Below are positions 7,671 through 58,900 of a stretch of DNA of 64,000 nucleotides, in pieces. A model generated the notes under the pieces. That model was not told the origin of the DNA and searched no databases. It saw only the letters and a list, made by a program, of their open reading frames with translations. The stretch's first letter is position 1. Each line of letters begins with the position of its first letter. The stretch lies in the NCBI GenBank assembly GCA_004193545.1, contig RPGO01000024.1, forward strand, positions 1-64,000, read 5' to 3'. The position numbers and the translations under genes are program-made. Source of the DNA: Candidatus Argoarchaeum ethanivorans. Its GTDB lineage: Archaea > Halobacteriota > Methanosarcinia > Methanosarcinales > EX4572-44.

Positions 7671-9113
7671 ATGGAGAAGAAAAAAATGAAAAGCAAAAGA
7701 AACATATCTTGGAAGATATCGGTGTTTGCACTTCTTTTCGCAGTACTGGCAGTTATAAGCATTGGATGCGCATCCGCTGATACGATTTATGTGCCTGACA
7801 ACCACACGACGATCCAGCAGGCAGTTAATAACGCTTCTTCAGGCGATATCATCATCGTTAGAGATGGCACACACAACGAAAACGTGGATGTGAACAAGTC
7901 GTATTTAACCATCCGCTCTGAGAACGGCAGTGTAAATTGCATCGTAAACGCAGCGGATTCAGGCGATCACGTCTTTAATGTAACTGCAAATTATGTCAAC
8001 ATCACTGGGTTCACGGTGGAAAATGCGACTGGAACTGACAAGGCAGGAATATATCTTAACAGCACGCAGCACTGCAACATTTCTGCTAATAACGTAATGA
8101 ACAACTACTTCGGCATCTACCTGTATTCTTCGAGCAACAACACGCTCACGGACAACAACGCAAGCTCGAACAACGACTACGGCATCTACCTGGAATCTTC
8201 GAGCAGCAACACGCTCATAAACAACACTGCGAACTCGAACACACAGCACGGCATCTTGCTGTATTCTTCGAGCAACAACAACCTCACGAGCAACACCGTT
8301 AACTCGAACACACAGCACGGCATCTCCCTGGAGTCTTCAAGCAACAACACACTCACGAGCAACACCGCTAACTCGAACACACAGCACGGCATCTGCCTGT
8401 GGTATTCGAGCAACAACAACACGCTCACAGAGAACACCGCTAACTCAAACGGTTGTGGCATCTACCTGTATTCTTCGAGCAACAACAACACGCTCACGAG
8501 TAACAACGCTTCGAGCAACAACTACGGCATCCGCCTGGATTCGAGCAACTACAACAATCTTTTGAGTAACAACGCCTACAACAATTCCTATGGCATCTAC
8601 CCGTGGTCTTCGAGCAACAACAACCTCACAGAGAACACTGCGAACTCGAACCATTATGGCGTCTACCTGCGATCTTCGAGCAACAACAGCATCTCCTGCA
8701 ATCTGGTGTATAACAATACAGAAGCGGGATTCTACTTAATTGATGGAAGCACTGGTAACACGATTGAGCGCAACAACATTGTCGAGAACGGCGCGTACAA
8801 CGGGACGAGCGGTGGCTGGGAATGGAACTTCTACAACGATCAATCAGATAATGTGAGTGCAAAATACAACTGGTGGGGAACTGTTGTTCCTTCAGAGATA
8901 GCAGCAAGCATCAACGAGGATACCGGAAGTGTGGACTACAGCGGCTATCTCGACGGGCCATCTCCGTGCGCACCCGGTTACCGACAACCAGCGCCAATAC
9001 CAGCGCCAATACCAGCGCCTGCATTCAGCGTAATTGGATTGCTTGCTTTGATTGGCATATTGAGCATCGTTCTTGCAGTAGCAACATTGAAGAGAAGTGA
9101 GAATAATAAATAA
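7671..9113 (+). CDS. Secreted parallel beta-helix (NosD-type) surface protein
   Basis: A 480-residue surface protein. Residues 1-37 form a signal peptide with a basic start, a hydrophobic core and an end at ASA before DTIYVP. A pectate-lyase-like start (TIQQAVNNASSGDIIIV) is followed by about a dozen right-handed beta-helix turns of the YGIYLxSSSNNTLTxNxANSN type. These are very rich in Asn-X-Ser/Thr sequons, so N-glycosylation is likely. The C-terminus has a PAPIPAPIPAPA linker, one membrane helix and a positive tail, so it is probably cell-anchored. A TATA-like TTTTATAAATA lies about 35 bp upstream. Its first 35 codons and a further block near 8010-8105 are almost identical to the gene at 9454, a recent duplicate or a gene-conversion partner. 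Confidence 0.85.
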   Translation: MEKKKMKSKRNISWKISVFALLFAVLAVISIGCASADTIYVPDNHTTIQQAVNNASSGDIIIVRDGTHNENVDVNKSYLTIRSENGSVNCIVNAADSGDHVFNVTANYVNITGFTVENATGTDKAGIYLNSTQHCNISANNVMNNYFGIYLYSSSNNTLTDNNASSNNDYGIYLESSSSNTLINNTANSNTQHGILLYSSSNNNLTSNTVNSNTQHGISLESSSNNTLTSNTANSNTQHGICLWYSSNNNTLTENTANSNGCGIYLYSSSNNNTLTSNNASSNNYGIRLDSSNYNNLLSNNAYNNSYGIYPWSSSNNNLTENTANSNHYGVYLRSSSNNSISCNLVYNNTEAGFYLIDGSTGNTIERNNIVENGAYNGTSGGWEWNFYNDQSDNVSAKYNWWGTVVPSEIAASINEDTGSVDYSGYLDGPSPCAPGYRQPAPIPAPIPAPAFSVIGLLALIGILSIVLAVATLKRSENNK

Positions 9114-9185
9114 TCCCCCCTCTTTTTTATTTTTTATTAAAAACAAATACCAAAATGTGATGGATAACATGGGCTCTATCCTGGT

Positions 9186-9392
9186 ATGAAGCCAACAAAC
9201 AATCTCAGCAAGCAGGTTATCAGAGAGCATGTACTCATGCGGAAGATCATAGGTGCTTTTAGGTCCAAGAAAGGCGCTGAATATTATCAGTACATCGCTT
9301 CAGTCTTCTCCACATGGCGATTACAAGGAAAAGATGTCTATGATGAACTCAAAGAATTGCTCACCAATGAACTTTGTTTGAGGTGCGCATAA
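9186..9392 (+). pseudogene. IS66-type transposase C-terminal remnant
   Basis: An open stretch encodes the very end of an IS66-like transposase: NNLSKQVIREHVLMRKI (normally NNLAERxIRPxVxxRK), then GAFRSKKGAEYYQYIASVFS and TWRLQGKDVYDELKELL. The DDE core upstream is absent, so this is a relic. It sits between the two beta-helix genes and may mark how they were duplicated. Confidence 0.75.
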
Positions 9393-9453
9393 AAATTTTC
9401 CGCATAAAAATTGAAACCCTTTTAAAAGGATATTTAGCTATACAAATATAAAA

Positions 9454-10662
9454 ATGGAGAAGAAAGAAATGAAAAGCAAAAGAAACATATCTTGGAAGAT
9501 ATCGGTGTTTGCACTTCTTTTCGCAGTACTGGCAGTTATAAGCATTGGATGCGCATCCGCTGATACGATTTACGTGCCTGAAGGCGGAAATCTGACGATC
9601 CAGCAGGCAGTTAATAACGCCTCAGAAGGTGACATCATCACCGTCCGCGACGCATACACCGGAACGAAAGAGAATATTGATGTGACTGTAGCTTATTTGA
9701 CGATTCAGTCAGAGAACGGCTCTGCAAGCTGCATCGTGAACGCATCGAATTCAAATGACCATGTCTTTGATGTGCAGCAAAATTACGTGAACATTACTGG
9801 GTTCACGGTGGAAAATGCGACTGGAACTGACAAGGCTGGAATATATCTTAACAGCACGCAGCACTGCAACATTTCTGCTAATAACGTAATGAACAGCTAC
9901 GACGGCATCCGCCTGTATTCTTCGAGCAACAACAATATCACGAACAACACCGCTAACTCGAACAATGTACTTGGCATCCGCCTGTGGGCTTCGAGCAACA
10001 ACACGCTCACGGACAACAACGCAAGCTCGAACAGCTACGGCATCCGCCTGTATCAGTCGAGCAGCAACACGCTCACGAACAACACTGCATCGAACAACGA
10101 CTACGGCATTTTCCTGCATTATTCGAGCAACAATATGCTCACGAGTAACACTGCATCGTACAACGACAACGGCATCTACCTGTATTCTTCGAGCAACAAT
10201 ATGCTCACGAACAACACCGCTAACTCGAACAACGACGATGGAATCCACCTACAATGGTTTTCAAGCAACAACAACATAGCGAACAACAATCTCATCAACA
10301 ACACCAACAACAACGCTTATGATACAAGCACCAACCAGTGGAACACCTCAACCGTTGGCAACTATTACTCAGACTACACAGGAAGCGACAACAACAGCGA
10401 TGGTATCGGCGACACTTCGTATCAGATTCCGGGTGGAAGCAACATTGATTACTTCCCACTCATGCATCCATGGGGAAAACCACCACTGAAAGGCGACCTT
10501 GACGGCGATTCCCAAATCACTTCAACAGATGCTGCAATCGTGCTTCAAATCGTAGTCGGCAGCAGCCCTTGCGATCCTGAAACCCTTGCTATTGCTGATA
10601 TGAACGGAGACGGTAGGGTTTCATCACTTGACGCTCTCATCATTCTACAGATGGCAGCATGA
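9454..10662 (+). CDS. Secreted beta-helix surface protein with C-terminal dockerin domain
   Basis: A 402-residue paralogue of the gene at 7671. It has the same signal peptide, the same beta-helix repeat type (roughly residues 45-300, YGIxLxxSSNNxLTxNxA), and a C-terminal end SDGIGDTSYQIPGGSNIDYFPL typical of NosD-like archaeal proteins. It then differs by ending in a type I dockerin module: two Ca-binding loops DLDGDSQITSTDA and DMNGDGRVSSLDA, each followed by a short helix. Dockerins bind cohesin modules, so this protein is probably docked non-covalently to another surface protein. No cohesin was seen in the window. The same module ends the giant protein at 41.4-45.4 kb. Confidence 0.87.
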   Translation: MEKKEMKSKRNISWKISVFALLFAVLAVISIGCASADTIYVPEGGNLTIQQAVNNASEGDIITVRDAYTGTKENIDVTVAYLTIQSENGSASCIVNASNSNDHVFDVQQNYVNITGFTVENATGTDKAGIYLNSTQHCNISANNVMNSYDGIRLYSSSNNNITNNTANSNNVLGIRLWASSNNTLTDNNASSNSYGIRLYQSSSNTLTNNTASNNDYGIFLHYSSNNMLTSNTASYNDNGIYLYSSSNNMLTNNTANSNNDDGIHLQWFSSNNNIANNNLINNTNNNAYDTSTNQWNTSTVGNYYSDYTGSDNNSDGIGDTSYQIPGGSNIDYFPLMHPWGKPPLKGDLDGDSQITSTDAAIVLQIVVGSSPCDPETLAIADMNGDGRVSSLDALIILQMAA

Positions 10663-33059: not shown

Positions 33060-33260
33060 AGTGCTTGTCAGCTTTCAGAATGTTGGAGGAAAATAAGAAA
33101 TCCTCTGGACTTAATCTTCAATGATGTGAAGTTAATGGATTTATATGCGAAGTGAGTTTGGATATAACGCCAATTTGAGTGGATATACGAACTTGACTTC
33201 AGATATACCAAAGTTATACAAAACTGCTGGCTATGGAAAAACGAATAGGAGTTGAATCTT

Positions 33261-34221
33261 ATGGTTAAACGCTGTTTTGTAATCATGCCTTTCTCGGCGA
33301 CGACAGAGAAACATACGGAGTCATACTGGAATAACTTCTTTTTTAAGTTCGTGAAGCCCTCAATTGAAAAACTTGGGTACTCCTGTAGTCGGTCTAATGC
33401 CCAACCATCAAACATAATCAAGGACATTCTCAAAGAACTCCTAGATGCAGATTTAGTTTTAGCAGTTTTGACGGACTTCAACGCGAATGTTTGGTATGAG
33501 TTAGGAAGCCGACACGCTTTACGGAAGGGCACTATTATGATGATTGAAGAAGGACAAAAACTACCCCTTTGATATAAGCCAATATGGTGTCATCAAGTAT
33601 GAAGACACAATTGCAGGTGCATCCGACTTTGAAGAGAAGTTACGAAGCTTTATTGAGAAAATTGAGGTTGACCAACCTGCAGATAGTCCAGCAATCGACT
33701 TTCTAGGAACTCAGACTCGTAATGATTATCAACAACGCATAGAGGACATGGAAACTAACTATCGTAGCAAGCTCGACAAAATTGTGCAGTTGCTACAAGA
33801 TTTACAGAAAGAGCGTGTAATAACTGAAGAGCCTAAAGAAAAGAAGCCGAAACTAGTCAAAAGAAAATGCCTATGGGTTGACGATTATCCTTCCAACAAT
33901 GAGGCAATAATCGATCTTTACCGCCAGCAGGGCGTGGAATTTGATCTTGCACTTAACACAGCACAGGCTTTGGATTGCCTAGCTAAAGGAGAATATGATC
34001 TTGTCATTTCTGACATTGGAAGGGGTTCTGAAGCAGACGCTGGGGTGCGGATGATTCGTGAGATCAACCGCCATCTTGGGAGTCCTCCCCCCATCTTGAT
34101 TTTCTCCAGCATCCAAGCAGTTGAACGATTCGGTAAAAGTGCAAAGAAGGAAGGGGCTTCACTTGTTACAGCATCTGCCCGGGATTTAGTTCTAAAGATG
34201 ACGGAGATGTTGGATTTATGA
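33261..34221 (+). pseudogene. TIR-like / deoxyribosyltransferase-like domain fused to a response-regulator receiver, frameshifted
   Basis: The first frame (ATG 33261, GGAG about ten bases upstream) encodes CFVIMPFSATTEKHTESYWN, DILKELLDADLVLAVLTD and NANVWYELGSRHALRKG, the pattern of TIR-like/nucleoside deoxyribosyltransferase-like domains (N-x-[WF]-YELG). The frame breaks in a CCCC run near 33565. With one C removed it continues as LPFDISQYGVIKYEDT, a linker with a coiled coil (QQRIEDMETNYRSKLDKIVQ), and a C-terminal receiver domain: LWVDDYPSNNEA, LVISDIGRGSEADAGVRMI with the phosphoacceptor Asp, ILIFSSIQ and a final K-rich helix. The whole would be about 320 residues. Everything but the single shift is preserved. 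Confidence 0.75.
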
Positions 34222-34389: not shown

Positions 34390-35567
34390 TAGTGTCTCAG
34401 CAACTTAATTTTTAGACAAAGTTTATAAACCTGTGAGTCCAACCATATTCTATGGAAAAAATAAAACTTACAGAGAAAGAGGTGGAGTATCTCAACGATT
34501 TCGTGAAAATGGGGCGTAAAAGCGCGAGAGAATTGACCCGGGCACATATTTTGCTTCTGGTCAATGATGGAAAAAAGGAAATGGAGATAAAAGATACGCT
34601 GCGGATCAGCAGGGCAACCGTTTCCAACACCAAGAAGAAATACCGCGAAGAAAGTCTCCAAAACGCCCTCGCGGAGAAACCAAGATCCGGTCAGCCTAAA
34701 AAGTATACAGAGAAACATGCGGCGGAAGTTATAGCGCAGGCATGCACCGAATCACCTGATGGGCGCAAGAGATGGACACTTACACTACTAACAGAAGAAA
34801 TGCGAAAGAAGGATGGGTTTGAAACGATAAACAAAGAGAGTATCAGGCTTATTTTAAAAAAAGCAAAACTAAACCTTGGTTAAGGCGGATGTGGTGCATA
34901 CAGACGATCGACACCGAATACAGAGAACGGATGTACGATGTTCTCGATCTGTACGAAGAACCGTACGACCCGGGAAGTCCCATTGTCTGTTTTGACGAGA
35001 AACCAAAGCAACTTCTTGGAGATAAAAGGATTTCCATCCCTATGAAGCCTGGAATCCCTGTGAAATATGATTATGAATACGTCAGGAACGGCACAGCAAA
35101 CATTTTCATGGCGGTCGAATTCAAAGCAGGGAAACGTGTGACCCAGATCACCAAAAGAAGAACCATGGTGGATTTTACACAATTTGTGAGGATGCTTGTC
35201 GATGAAGAATACCCAGACGTTGAAAACATCCAACTGGTCATGGATAACCTCAATACTCACAAGGAAAAGTCATTTTACGAGGCATTCAGTGAGGAGGAGG
35301 CGGAAAGGATTTTGAGCAAGATCGAGTTTCATTACACGCCAAAACATGCAAGCTGGCTTAATGCCGCTGAAATCGAGATCAATGTGATGGATATCGAATG
35401 CACTGACAGACGGATTGGAGATATGGAGATACTGACTCATGAGGTGACAGCGTGGACCAGGAGACGGAATGACGATGAAAAGAAAATCAACTGGGGGTTT
35501 ACGAGGGGGAAGGCGGATAAGAAACTGTCCAAGTATTATGTCTAAGAACTAAATTGTCGAGACACTA
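34390..35567. mobile_element. IS630-family insertion sequence (copy 2)
   Basis: An approximately 1.18-kb element with inverted ends TAGTGTCTCAGCAACTTAAT and the complement of TAGTGTCTCGACAATTTAG, each including the TA target duplication. It sits immediately before the GGAGG ribosome-binding site of hicB at 35581, so it separates that gene from its old promoter. Its two transposase frames overlap. Confidence 0.88.
34452..35545 (+). CDS. IS630 transposase in two overlapping frames
   Basis: Frame 1 (34452-34883): helix-turn-helix part with ARELTRAHILLLVNDGKKE, IKDTLRISRATVSNTKKKY, EKPRSGQPKKY, ending KKAKLNLG. Frame 2 (visible from about 34857): KPWLRRMWCIQ, then VCFDEKPKQLLGD (first Asp), IQLVMDNLNTHKEKSFYEAF (second Asp) and HYTPKHASWLNAAEIEINVM (Glu). 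At 34856-34863, TTAAAAAAAGC supplies an A-AAA-AAA heptamer in the zero frame; slipping back one base joins the frames as ILKKSKTKPWLRRMW. The gene may therefore work by programmed -1 frameshifting, known in other IS families, or be a simple mutant. Confidence 0.8.
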
Positions 35568-36110: not shown

Positions 36111-36371
36111 ATGGATAAGGGTCGTATACTTGAAGAGTTGAAAAGGAACCCAAAGAAGATTCGTTTTAAGAGGCTATGCACGGTCGCTGGGGCTTTTGGG
36201 TTTAGATTTAAAGGCGGAATGGGCAGCCATCGTATTTATGTGCGAGATGGAATAGATGAAATGTTAAATTTTCAAAATATAAGTGGTAAGGTAAAACCTT
36301 ATCAAGTAAAACAGCTTATAAAGATTATTGAAAAGTATAACCTCTTAAAGGAAGATGAAAGAGATGTATAA
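36111..36371 (+). CDS. hicA: HicA-family toxin (mRNA interferase)
   Basis: An 86-residue HicA-like protein. The N-terminal half is an extended helix (GRILEELKRNPKKIRFKRLC), then the dsRBD-like core with GFRFKGGMGSHRIYVRDGID and the conserved His in GSH, then NISGKVKPYQVKQLIKIIEK. It would degrade mRNA until bound by HicB. It overlaps the next gene by 8 bp or so. This module is of a different subtype from the one at 35.6 kb (order toxin-antitoxin here, antitoxin-toxin there). Confidence 0.82.
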   Translation: MDKGRILEELKRNPKKIRFKRLCTVAGAFGFRFKGGMGSHRIYVRDGIDEMLNFQNISGKVKPYQVKQLIKIIEKYNLLKEDERDV

Positions 36372-36624
36372 GTACGCAATAGAGATATTCCACAGCGAAG
36401 AAGACGAGGGGTCTATCGCGGTGGTACCAGAATTACCGGGATGCACAGCGTTCGGAGAAAACGAAGAAAAGGCATTGGAAGAGATAAAAATAGCTATGGA
36501 ACTATGGATAGAGACTGCGAAAAAAGAAGGGAGAAATATACCACAACCCCCTGGAAAAGAGATTCTAAAACTAATCTATGAGAATTCCTTTCGCACCACA
36601 CACCTTGATGGGGCCGGCGCATAA
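36364..36624 (+). CDS. hicB: HicB-family antitoxin (second module)
   Basis: An 86-residue HicB: KYAIEIFHSEEDEGSIAVVP, ELPGCTAFGENEEKALEEIK, IAMELWIETAKKEGRNIPQP. The Met at 36364 (MYKYAIEIF) is preferred; the frame is open three codons earlier. Its stop TAA lies inside the left end (GCATAAC) of the attC-like element, as often seen when a cassette gene runs into its recombination site. Confidence 0.84.
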   Translation: MYKYAIEIFHSEEDEGSIAVVPELPGCTAFGENEEKALEEIKIAMELWIETAKKEGRNIPQPPGKEILKLIYENSFRTTHLDGAGA

Positions 36625-37369: not shown

Positions 37370-38394
37370 TTAAAACAATGGTTTATCGGTTTGTGGCAGA
37401 ATCTGTTGTTCTCGCGCAAGCTGAAAGAGTGTTTCGACCGCTGCTTTACCATCTACTCCTATGTCGATGGTGTAATCATTAACGTACATGCCGATATGGG
37501 CTTGTATCACATCGTCTGCCATTTCCTGTGCATACTGTTTTACATATTGCATTGCTGCACCAGGGTTTTTATTTGCATACTTGATGCTCTCACAAAGAGC
37601 TGTGTCGATAGTATCTATGGCTTTTTTGCCAATACTTCGCTTTGCAGCAACACAACCGAGGGGAATTAACTTCCCAGTCTCATCTTCCCACCATTCTCCA
37701 AGATCCACCACTTTCTTTAGCCCATAGTGTGGATAGGTAAAGCGGCTTTCATGAATGAACTTCGCTTTGCAGCAACACAACCGAGGGGAATTAACTTCCC
37801 AGTCTCATCTTCCCACCATTCTCCAAGATCCACCACTTTCTTTAGCCCATAGTGTGGATAGGTAAAGCGGCTTTCATGAATGATTGCTCCCGCATCAACA
37901 ATTCCATCTGCTACCGCAGGCATTATTTTGTCAAATGGCATGGCGACTATGTTTTTTATTTTTGGCTCAAACAATTGCAACAACAGGTATGCAGTGGTAA
38001 ATTTTCCTGGCACAGCAATTGTTTTTCCAGTAAGCTCTGCCTGTTTGAAACTCTCTTGTGCAACAATAATTGGCCCACACCCTCTTCCAAGTGCACTTCC
38101 ACTTCGCAGAAGAGAGTATTCATCAAGCAGGAATCCAAGTGCATGGTAGGAAAGCTTGCTTACATCATAGCATCCTGAAAATGCCTGCCGGTTCAATGTC
38201 TCAATATCATGCAGGTGCGGGTTGAATCTGACGTTGCATATATCAACAGGTAAATTTGTTTCTGCTTGCGTTGTATGTGGGTGTTGGTTAAATCTGACGT
38301 TGCATGTATCGACAAGGTTGTGGGCTAAAGCATGAAATATAAAGGTATCATTAGGGCACGTTGAATAGCCAAGTGAATAATATTTGTTTACCAT
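37370..38394 (-). pseudogene. MqnD-like menaquinone biosynthesis gene broken by a 125-bp tandem duplication
   Basis: The N-terminal part (38394 down to about 37760) is an MqnA/MqnD periplasmic-binding-fold enzyme: YSLGYSTCPNDTFIFHALAH, GCYDVSKLSYHALGFLLDEY, GSALGRGCGPIIVAQESF, AVPGKFTTAYLLLQLF. The C-terminal part (to 37370) continues as IGKKAIDTIDTALCESIKYA, QEMADDVIQAHIGMYVNDYT. A perfect 125-bp tandem duplication lies between; because 125 is not a multiple of three, it shifts the frame. Removing one unit restores about 295 residues. The family makes 1,4-dihydroxy-6-naphthoate in the futalosine route. Near the N-terminus a short segment is also repeated (CNVRFNQHPH / CNVRFNPHLH). Function is lost unless the duplication is excised. 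Confidence 0.85.
37634..37883. repeat. Perfect 125-bp tandem duplication
   Basis: Units 37634-37758 and 37759-37883 are identical, beginning ACTTCGCTTTGCAGCAACAC and ending CTTTCATGAATGA. The absence of any mismatch points to a very recent event, or to an assembly error. Confidence 0.95.
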
Positions 38395-55918: not shown

Positions 55919-58900
55919 TTATCCTGCCCCCCGCAAACGCAGGAAATGCACCGCGCCTGATGCATCGCCTGCGACGATGGTTCTGCCGTCTGGCGATATG
56001 GCGCAGGCGCGAAGAGGGGCGTCCCCGCTGAACGAAGCGATGATTTCTCCGGTTTTTATGTCCCAGTCCCAGACCTTGAGTGTTCGGTCGTCTGATGCTG
56101 ATATCGCATACTCCCCATCTGATGTAACAGCAATCGCATCGACCCAGCTGGTGTGACCTTCCAATGTTCGCAGTTCTTCCCCGCTCTCAATATTCCAGAC
56201 CTTAAATGTCTCATCGCGCGAGGCTGATATGGCACGGCTTCCATCTGGTGTAACAGCAACCGCCCTGACCGATCTGGTGTGACCTTTGAATCTCTGTGTT
56301 TCTTCTCCACGCTCAATGTCCCAGACCTTGAGGGTGCGGTCGTCTGATGCTGATATCGCATACTTTCCATCTGGTGTAACAGCAACCGCCCTGACCGATC
56401 TGGTGTGACCTTTGAATCTCTGTGTTTCTTCTCCACGCTCAATGTCCCAGACCTTGAGGGTGCGGTCGTCTGATGCTGATATCGCATACTTTCCATCTGG
56501 TGTAACAGCAACAGCATTTATCTCCCCAGTATGGCCGCTAAGTGTTAGCAGTTTTTCTCCACTCTCGATATCCCAGACCCTGAGGGTGTTGTCCCATGCT
56601 CCTGAGATTGCGTATCTTCCATCCGGTGTAACAGCAACCGCCCTGACCGATCTGGTGTGACCTTCGAGTCTCTGTGTTTCTTCTCCACTCTCGATATCCC
56701 AGACCCTGAGGGTCTTGTCACTTGATCCTGAGATTGCGTGTCTTCCATCTGGCGTAACAGCAACCGCCTTGACCCCGCCGATATGACCTTCGAGTGTCTG
56801 TATTTCTTCTCCACTCTCGATATCCCAGACCCTGAGGGTCTTGTCACTTGATCCTGAGATTGCGTGTCTTCCATCTGGCGTAACAGCAACCGCCTTGACC
56901 CCGCCGATATGACCTTCGAGTGTCTGTATTTCTTCTCCACTCTCGATATCCCAGACCCTGAGGGTCTTGTCACTTGATCCTGAGATTGCGTGTCTTCCAT
57001 CTGGCGTAACAGCAACCGCCTTGACCCCGCCGATATGACCTTCCAGCACACGTATCAATGGTCCTCCGGGCGGTATCAGACTGGCTGTACGCGGGCAGAG
57101 CCACATACCACCACTCCATCCACGAGCCTGCTCAAGCATCGATTGAATCCCGGATTCCTTAAAGGTTTGCAAGCGACCCAAAAGCTGTCCGGCAAGCTGT
57201 GTCTTATCCCGGGCTAACACATGCGCAGACAGCCGGATTGCGCCCTGCACGAGGTGCAGATCAGAGTCATCAGGCAGATGATCATAATCGCTGACGAGGG
57301 AGTTGACGTCGGTTGCAACAAGTTTCGCCTGCAGCCAGTTAAAATCAAGTAAAAGCTCGTGTAGATCCTCTTTTCTTCCAGCCTCGACCAAGTGGTACGC
57401 CAGATGCTCAAAGAAGTAATCGTCATTTGGACCGCTCTTCCAGCCATCTACACACCTCTCTTGATACGCATCCAGCAGCCGATCGTGAAGACTGCTCAGA
57501 TCGCCCACAACCGCACGCAGGTAATCATGCTGCAAGTCGTGCAGCGAGACAAGACGATGAGGCGCTTCGCCTTCGAGCCGCAGCAGTGCTTTTCGTTCCA
57601 GTGTGGTGAGCAGTCTGCGTGCATCACGCTCCTTCAATCCATCTGTATGAAGCCAGAATGTCAGCACAGCCGCCTCTGGTACTGCCTCGTCTACAGGGAA
57701 GACCGCCAGTTCATGGTAATGTTGTGCTGCGGCAGTATTCTCTTTAGCCAGCGCATCGACGCTCACTTTCAGTGCCTTCAAGACATCCGGATAAGGGTAA
57801 TTCGGAATCTTCCCCTCGATGAACGTGAGATCAGCCTCCTCCAGAGCCTCAAGCATGTCAGACCATGGTATGCCGTCGCGTGCCATCGCACCACAGAGGG
57901 AAAGTGCAAGCGGCAGGTTTCCGCACTCACTGGCAACTAACACTGCTTCAGGAGGCAACGATCCCACATCCTGATCACACCAGTTCGCAAGAAGCTGAAG
58001 AGCGGCAGCGTCGGTCAGCACATCCATGCTATGCTCCTCTGCACCCAGTGCGGTTACCAGACTGCCATCACGCGTGGTTACGAGCAGCCGACAGCGCGGA
58101 CCAAGAGCATTGACGAAGGGGGTGGCATGAGCGACATTCCAGACATCATCCAGCACGATCAGATAGACCTTGTCTGAAAGAACCCCAGGCAGACGCGCCC
58201 TTGCGCTATCGAGATCAACGTAATTTGCAGGATCATCATCAAAAGCCGTGCCCACAAGTTTAAGGTTCGAAAGCAGGTCTGGTTTCAGTCCGATCGTAAG
58301 CCAGATAACACCGTCAGTAAATGCACGACGCGTCTCGGTAGCCCGTGCAAACGCAGCCGCAATAACCGATTTTCCGACACCGCCCATTCCCTGGAGTGCG
58401 GTTGTCTGTCTTGCCGATGTGATCGCTGTTGGTCGCTGTACGTCTGCAAGCACTGTTTCCCCAAGGCGGGTAATCTCGTCGCTGCGTGGCAGGAAATGCG
58501 GCGGCAGGGATGGAACCGCAGTGAGCAAGGGACCGGGTGGCGGAACTGGCTCGGCGAGGATGCGGAGCAGCTCGTCAAGGGCTTCGTTGTAAGGGCGCTC
58601 TCTCTGAAAGTCCGGGCAGTGGAACTTCGAGAGTTCATCCGGGATCAGGCTGTAGTCGCCCTCACGCAAAATCGGAACCACGCCCCTGCTGAAGAGGAGA
58701 GCATGCTCCCATTCTGCCCGGACATAATCTGATCTGACCGCATTCGGACCGATGACGGCAATCAGGCGGTCCGACCCCTCGACCGCGTCACGGAGTTCCT
58801 GCAAGAAGGTCCGACCGCGGCTCTGCATGGTCTGTTGATCCCACCAGACATCGAAACCATGCTCGATTAGATCGTCGTGGAGCTGCTTGACGAATGACTC

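What the first reader, a model, noticed from the sequence alone, without database searches (positions are those of the whole stretch)
33261..34221. Fusion of a TIR-like/deoxyribosyltransferase-like domain to a two-component receiver
A VxMPF ... NxWYELG domain joined by a coiled coil to a receiver with an intact phosphoacceptor Asp (LVISDIG) implies an NAD- or nucleotide-acting effector switched by phosphorelay. I do not know this architecture as a described system. One C too many in a CCCC run breaks it in this copy.
Basis: partly seen in the sequence, partly recalled or inferred. Interest (0 to 1): 0.7.

Follow-up and report, generated by a model that had tools for sequence, protein, structure and literature searches.

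The report
Nucleotide-cleaving enzyme joined to orphan receiver
An archaeal gene, broken by a one-base frame break in this copy but intact in relatives, joins a probable NAD- or nucleotide-cleaving domain to a phosphorelay-type receiver that seems to work without any kinase partner, which looks like a new mix of parts from microbial antivirus defence proteins.

Summary
Window 33261-34221 is one ancestral gene cut by a single-base frame break at a C run (33564-33567). The front half is a nucleoside deoxyribosyltransferase/DNPH1-type domain (related to TIR), with the catalytic-type Glu conserved. A helix then leads to a receiver domain. The fusion is real: an ANME-1 archaeon has an intact 91%-identical copy, and a Clostridium MAG has an intact 42%-identical copy beside Hachiman genes.

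The "switched by phosphorelay" reading is not supported. The receiver subfamily keeps the Asp triad but never the conserved Lys. The host genome (82% complete) has this one receiver and no histidine kinase that I could find. No examined locus of the subfamily has a kinase neighbour. The same receiver type occurs behind transmembrane segments (the architecture described for Cam2) and inside MoxR/SAV_2336 conflict proteins. In a third archaeon the receiver was replaced in place by a pYEATS domain, leaving a receiver stump.

Best reading: a defence-type effector in which a kinase-independent receiver senses a ligand or partner and turns on an N-glycosidase acting on NAD+ or nucleotides. Effector and sensor classes are known separately. 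I found no published description of this pairing, but a key paper (Burroughs and Aravind 2020) was not readable here.

The parts
33247..33251 (+). AGGAG, probable ribosome-binding site, 9 nt before the ATG
   Evidence: read directly from the sequence
33261..33572 (+). ORF1: NDT/DNPH1-type (TIR-DrHyd superfamily) domain, residues 1-103, cut short by a TGA at 33570-33572
33498..33500 (+). codon of the Glu in NxNVWYELG (Glu80), invariant in 18 of 18 family members and aligned with the YELG Glu of DNPH1/Rcl
33564..33567 (+). C run at which the reading frame is broken by a single-base length change; intact copies exist elsewhere
33544..34221 (+). ORF2: end of the NDT-type domain, helical linker and receiver
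33721..33810 (+). long helix joining the domains (possible coiled coil)
   Evidence: AlphaFold model of the intact homologue, heptad count
33859..34218 (+). receiver domain, subfamily LWVDDxPxNN ... (S/T)D(M/I)xR, without the canonical Lys
   Evidence: PF00072 E 1.1e-7; subfamily alignment; Foldseek to receivers
33880..33885 (+). acidic pair Asp-Asp of the receiver
34012..34014 (+). candidate phosphoacceptor Asp of the receiver
34452..35545 (+). IS630-type transposase in two ORFs (HTH; DDE_3), just downstream; not part of the gene
36111..36624 (+). HicA/HicB pair; a related pair follows the homologous gene in Methanophagales G37ANME1 (75% DNA identity)

Best explanation
The gene encodes (or, in this copy, recently encoded) a two-part defence-type effector. 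The N-terminal NDT/DNPH1-like domain of the TIR-DrHyd-SLOG superfamily is an N-glycosidase that attacks NAD+ or a (deoxy)nucleotide through its conserved Glu. The C-terminal receiver-like domain works as a sensor or adaptor switch independent of histidine kinases. On binding a small ligand (perhaps a nucleotide signal) or a partner protein at its Asp-rich pocket, it would drive dimerisation or oligomerisation through the helix and switch the enzyme on, stopping the infected cell. Shown: the fusion, the folds, conserved Glu and Asp, loss of the Lys, purifying selection on both halves, swap of the receiver for pYEATS in a relative, and absence of detectable kinases in the host genome and neighbourhoods. 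Inferred: enzymatic activity, substrate, ligand, oligomerisation and defence role. The frame break implies that this copy is newly inactivated or carries a sequencing or assembly error.
For: Front domain: profile match to DNPH1/Rcl (E 3e-5), Foldseek to DNPH1, MilB and NDT structures (E 8e-5 to 1e-3, TM about 0.6) with a TIR-STING hit at rank 21, invariant R44, N74, N76, E80, F103, D104, Y113 in 18 of 18. Receiver: fold matches; in all members with sequence there the Asp pair and Asp are kept and the Lys column is S, S, G, S, D, R or D. No kinase: the only Response_reg in the host genome is this one, HisKA gives 0, and the four HATPase_c hits read as GyrB, two RsbT/RsbW-like proteins and TopoVI-B; three same-genus genomes have neither receiver nor HisKA. 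Contexts: beside Hachiman HamA/HamB in Clostridium, beside a STAND NTPase in ANME-1; the receiver subfamily also follows TM segments beside an Alw26I-type R-M gene set or an AriA/PtuA/GajA-like ATPase in E. coli, and lies inside a SAV_2336/MoxR system. Domain swap: L058 keeps the front domain at 73%, then has pYEATS (E 3e-16) at 31% GC against 52% upstream, and a receiver stump in another frame. Selection: dN/dS 0.087 and 0.179. Literature parallel: Cam2 TM-REC, proposed to bind a cyclic oligoadenylate (PMC11229360); kinase-independent receivers as nucleotide-responsive switches (PMC8195603).
Against: No activity has been measured. Only two intact fusion copies and one decayed copy were found besides the window. 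Each neighbour association (Hachiman, STAND) is a single case. No Cas10 and no clear CD-NTase was found in the host or in the ANME-1 genome, so a cyclic-oligonucleotide signal has no evident source there. The Asp triad is fully conserved, which phosphorylation would also explain, and the ANME-1 hosts of relatives do have histidine kinases. The host genome is only 82% complete.
Confidence: 0.5

Rival explanations
1. One reading: a true response regulator. A histidine kinase phosphorylates the Asp and thereby turns the enzyme on or off, as in Detocs-like defensive two-component systems.
For: Asp pair and phosphoacceptor Asp conserved in every member with sequence there. The ANME-1 hosts of two relatives have 15 and 3 receivers and 7 and 1 HisKA domains. 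Detocs is a precedent for a two-component-type defence system with a nucleotide-degrading effector (PMC11249213).
Against: Lys missing throughout the subfamily. No kinase gene beside any of the loci examined (window, L056, L057, L058, L101, L105, L107; partly by reading ORFs). No histidine kinase found in the host genome.
Confidence: 0.15
2. The receiver-like domain is itself an enzyme or brake, like the predicted cyclic-phosphate-processing cREC, trimming or sequestering the product of the front domain.
For: cREC is predicted to use the receiver Asp residues and is linked to NAD/ADPr enzymes, never to histidine kinases (PMC7824862, PMC9503650). The E. coli TM-REC relative has a sub-threshold PF20274 hit (E 0.0046).
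Against: No PF20274 match for the window protein or the intact homologues. The same receiver is fused to TM segments without any NAD enzyme.
Confidence: 0.1
3. A housekeeping nucleotide-sanitising enzyme (DNPH1-like) under ordinary regulation, with no defence role.
For: Nearest solved relatives are DNPH1 and NDT, and DNPH1 is a sanitation enzyme (own knowledge).
Against: Very sparse distribution: 2 of 394 phylum genomes besides the host carry the close front domain. The gene has a 91% relative in another family of the phylum, with homology confined to the gene and short flanks. Domain swapping and defence neighbours fit poorly with housekeeping.
Confidence: 0.1
4. On the state of this copy: the frame break is real and the gene is dead here, the two ORFs being leftovers.
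For: The break is clear in the assembly, an IS630 element sits next door, and the related locus in G37ANME1 and a Lachnospiraceae copy are also remodelled or decayed.
Against: Only one indel in 1060 bases, no other stop, and low dN/dS on both sides of the break, equally compatible with a sequencing or assembly error. The break makes a CTT-TGA string that resembles the prfB +1 shift site (own knowledge), but intact relatives lack it, so a programmed shift is unlikely.
Confidence: 0.5

Closest known systems
Cam2 (CRISPR-associated membrane protein 2; PMC11229360)
   Same: Effector part at the N-terminus, kinase-less REC domain at the C-terminus, REC proposed to be switched by a bound ligand and not by phosphorylation
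   Different: Cam2 carries a TM effector and sits in type III CRISPR loci; here the effector is an NDT/DNPH1-type enzyme and no Cas10 was found in the host or in the ANME-1 relative. Cam2 sequences were not compared.
WP-TM-receiver and WP-TM-HEPN proteins (Anantharaman 2013, PMC3710099)
   Same: Receiver module fused behind an interchangeable N-terminal module; relatives here have the same TM-REC layout (L090, L100, L106)
   Different: The TM segment is replaced by an enzymatic domain
TIR-SAVED, CARF-TIR and TIR-STING effectors
   Same: NAD/nucleotide-cleaving domain of the TIR-DrHyd-SLOG class plus a sensor domain
   Different: The sensor is a receiver and not SAVED, CARF or STING; no clear CD-NTase or Cas10 found in the host
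Detocs (defensive two-component system with a PNP effector)
   Same: Receiver fused to a nucleotide-degrading effector (DtcC; partly from own knowledge)
   Different: Detocs has a histidine kinase and a second receiver gene beside it (own knowledge); none here
DNPH1/Rcl and nucleoside 2-deoxyribosyltransferase
   Same: Fold, profile similarity, catalytic-type Glu in YELG
   Different: Below the PF05014 cut-off, extra conserved N-x-N and R44, fused to a receiver

Membership tests
Two-component response regulator | receiver fold | tested here: met
   PF00072 above cut-off; Foldseek E to 4e-7
Two-component response regulator | acidic pair and phosphoacceptor Asp | tested here: met
   conserved in all members with sequence there
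Two-component response regulator | conserved Lys after strand 5 | tested here: not met
   S, S, G, S, D, R, D at that column
Two-component response regulator | conserved Thr/Ser after strand 4 | tested here: inconclusive
   Ser in the window and ANME-1, Ala in Clostridium, E. coli and Rhizobium
Two-component response regulator | partner histidine kinase | tested here: not met
   none adjacent; none found in host genome, which is 82% complete
NDT/DNPH1 (DrHyd) superfamily | fold | tested here: met
   model pLDDT 82, pTM 0.79, best hits DNPH1, MilB and NDT
NDT/DNPH1 (DrHyd) superfamily | catalytic-type Glu | tested here: met
   YELG Glu aligned to Rcl and invariant 18 of 18
NDT/DNPH1 (DrHyd) superfamily | curated Pfam cut-off of PF05014 | tested here: not met
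   16.8 bits against 28.8; 10 of 18 family members match PF05014, best E 1.4e-6
NDT/DNPH1 (DrHyd) superfamily | N-glycosidase activity | not testable with these tools
   needs an enzyme assay
TIR domain | TIR profile match | tested here: inconclusive
   PADLOC TIR effector 1.3e-6; TIR_2 in only 4 of 18 members, best 0.0028; none for the intact homologue
Cam2 | C-terminal REC without a kinase | tested here: met
Cam2 | N-terminal TM segment | tested here: not met
   N-terminus is a soluble NDT/DNPH1-type domain
Cam2 | type III CRISPR locus | tested here: not met
   no Cas10 palm domain in G000, G293 or G156
Detocs | adjacent kinase and second receiver gene | tested here: not met
   neighbouring genes in window, L056, L057
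CBASS TIR effector | CD-NTase partner | tested here: not met
   SMODS hits in the host and in ANME-1 read as CCA-adding enzymes
cREC | PF20274 match | tested here: not met
   no hit for window or intact homologues

The most novel reading that the evidence does not exclude
The LWVDDxPxNN receiver is a portable, histidine-kinase-independent sensor (probably for a nucleotide signal) that defence proteins place behind different killing modules: NDT/TIR-type enzymes, membrane segments and multidomain conflict proteins. It is interchangeable with pYEATS. The window family would then be a new receiver-gated N-glycosidase defence effector.
Probability: 0.35. Interest if true: 0.7.

Novelty: new variant of a known kind. 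Interest (0 to 1): 0.48.

Why it matters
If right, it shows a receiver domain doing a job other than phosphorelay: gating a nucleotide-destroying enzyme, in an archaeon that appears to lack histidine kinases altogether. It also gives a natural swap experiment (the same enzyme with a receiver or with pYEATS) pointing to a shared sensor role for two poorly understood domains. That makes the open question 'what do kinase-less receivers sense?' testable with one small soluble protein.

Tried and rejected
Programmed +1 frameshift at CTT-TGA: rejected, because intact relatives lack the site. Cyclic-oligonucleotide signalling from CBASS or type III CRISPR in the host: no Cas10, and the SMODS hits read as CCA-adding enzymes. 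Plasmid and phage searches with the fused protein found only front-domain relatives such as TRAFs-binding proteins and Streptococcus/Staphylococcus phage proteins; a receiver-half search of phages gave one weak hit. Two viral-contig scans found no fusion. NCBIfam gave only generic response-regulator hits. Paper searches found no NDT/TIR-receiver description, but Burroughs and Aravind 2020, cited in PMC8195603 for conflict-system receivers, was not held under the DOI I tried, so a prior description there cannot be excluded. Search in the Clostridium clade was not possible because that genome has no handle.

Full report
OBSERVATION. ORF1 has VIMPF...NANVWYELG; ORF2 has a helical stretch and a receiver (PF00072, E 1.1e-7, above cut-off). 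The front half is weak against PF05014 (E 0.0076) but matches a PADLOC TIR-effector model (E 1.3e-6).

ONE GENE, INTACT ELSEWHERE. A search of 394 genomes of the phylum found an intact 323-aa homologue, 91% identical over all 319 residues. It lies on contig QBUL01000106 of ANME-1 cluster archaeon GoMg1 (L056). A scan of 84,980 genomes added an intact 305-aa protein in a Clostridium MAG (L057, 42% over residues 3-303) and a decayed copy in a Lachnospiraceae MAG (L059). Window and ANME-1 DNA align over 1060 bases, from 35 bases before the ATG to 64 after the stop, at 91% with one gap. dN/dS is 0.087 before the break and 0.179 after it. Both halves have been under purifying selection, and the break is very recent or an error. 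The tools cannot decide which.

FRONT DOMAIN. An 18-member alignment matches DNPH1/Rcl in the PDB sequence set (E 3e-5). AlphaFold (pLDDT 82, pTM 0.79) followed by Foldseek gives DNPH1, MilB and NDT as best hits (E 8e-5 down, TM about 0.6), with TIR-STING at rank 21. Invariant in all 18 are F6, P10, R44, N74, N76, E80, F103, D104 and Y113. E80 aligns with the YELG Glu of Rcl, which from established knowledge of DNPH1 is the nucleophile. The domain therefore belongs to the TIR-DrHyd-SLOG group described in PMC9503650, on the DrHyd/NDT side. The substrate (NAD+ or deoxynucleotides) is inferred, not shown.

RECEIVER. Foldseek and Pfam agree on a receiver. In an alignment with related receivers the acidic pair and the Asp are kept in every member with sequence there. 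The canonical Lys column reads S, S, G, S, D, R or D, and the Thr/Ser is Ala in Clostridium, E. coli and Rhizobium. The subfamily signature is LWVDDxPxNN ... (S/T)D(M/I)xR. It recurs behind a TM segment in a relative of the same class (L090, L100), in E. coli (27 of 5426 genomes) and in Proteus, and inside a SAV_2336 protein with a SLOG domain next to MoxR in Rhizobium. The WP-TM-receiver layout is described in PMC3710099. Receivers without kinases in conflict systems are described in PMC7159879 and PMC8195603. Cam2 (TM-REC) in type III CRISPR loci is described in PMC11229360 and is proposed to bind a cyclic oligoadenylate. I did not have Cam2 sequences, so identity of the receiver subfamilies is not tested.

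NO KINASE. In the window's own genome (82% complete) the only Response_reg domain is this one. HisKA gives nothing, and the four HATPase_c hits read as GyrB, two RsbT/RsbW-like proteins and TopoVI-B. Three same-genus genomes (56 to 78% complete) have neither receiver nor HisKA. The ANME-1 genomes do have two-component genes, so phosphorylation there cannot be excluded. None of the examined loci has a kinase neighbour (partly by reading the ORFs).

DOMAIN SWAP. In Methanophagales G37ANME1 (L058) the front domain is 73% identical. After the shared KKPKL linker the receiver is replaced by a pYEATS domain (PF20305, E 3e-16). The swapped stretch has 31% GC against 52% upstream and 49% downstream; only 2 of 2068 windows of the locus are as AT-rich. 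A stump of the receiver's last 54 residues (56% identical) survives in another frame behind it. A HicA/HicB pair follows, as it follows the window gene beyond an IS630 element. This suggests that receiver and pYEATS serve as alternative input modules for one enzyme.

NEIGHBOURS. Clostridium: HamA and HamB of Hachiman (PADLOC E 7e-122 and 2e-228). ANME-1: a STAND NTPase with TPRs, about 200 bases upstream. TM-REC relatives: an Alw26I-type R-M gene set and an AriA/PtuA/GajA-like ATPase in E. coli. Each is a single case, but together they lean to defence.

MECHANISM. Best supported is a defence-type effector in which a kinase-independent receiver senses a ligand or partner and gates an N-glycosidase. 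Confidence is about 0.5 for the whole statement, higher for the anatomy. The most likely signal class is a nucleotide, by analogy with Cam2 and TIR-SAVED only. No Cas10 or clear CD-NTase was found in the host or the ANME-1 relative, so the source of a signal is unknown. Phosphorelay control gets about 0.15.

NOVELTY. New variant of a known kind: known effector class, known kinase-less receiver class, pairing not found described in the papers held. A key paper (Burroughs and Aravind 2020) could not be read.

Noticed in passing
window 37619-37883: A 125-base stretch is present twice in tandem, 100% identical by Tandem Repeats Finder, inside a minus-strand gene (ORFs 37370-37780 and 37717-38394 share about 40 residues). 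It is a fresh duplication or an assembly artefact.
   Followed up: partly
window 34452-35545: IS630-type transposase split over two ORFs directly behind the gene.
   Followed up: partly
window 8099-10236 and 56066-57043: Long coding-type tandem arrays with units of about 66-69 and 126 bases, suggestive of repeat proteins.
   Followed up: no
L058:10001-10980: In-place replacement of a receiver by an AT-rich pYEATS domain with a receiver stump left behind.
   Followed up: yes
L107:6961-9705 (E. coli chromosome): AAA ATPase resembling AriA/PtuA/GajA next to a TM-REC 'response regulator' with no kinase nearby; the TM-REC gene is in 27 of 5426 E. coli genomes: a candidate defence pair for laboratory tests.
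   Followed up: partly
L109 (G000:C10): Cluster in the host archaeon that reads like RsbR/RsbS/RsbT plus a PP2C phosphatase (stressosome type), in a genome without detectable histidine kinases.
   Followed up: no
L022:2464-3237 (G000:C43): A second TIR/NDT-like protein in the host genome (32% identity), without a receiver.
   Followed up: partly
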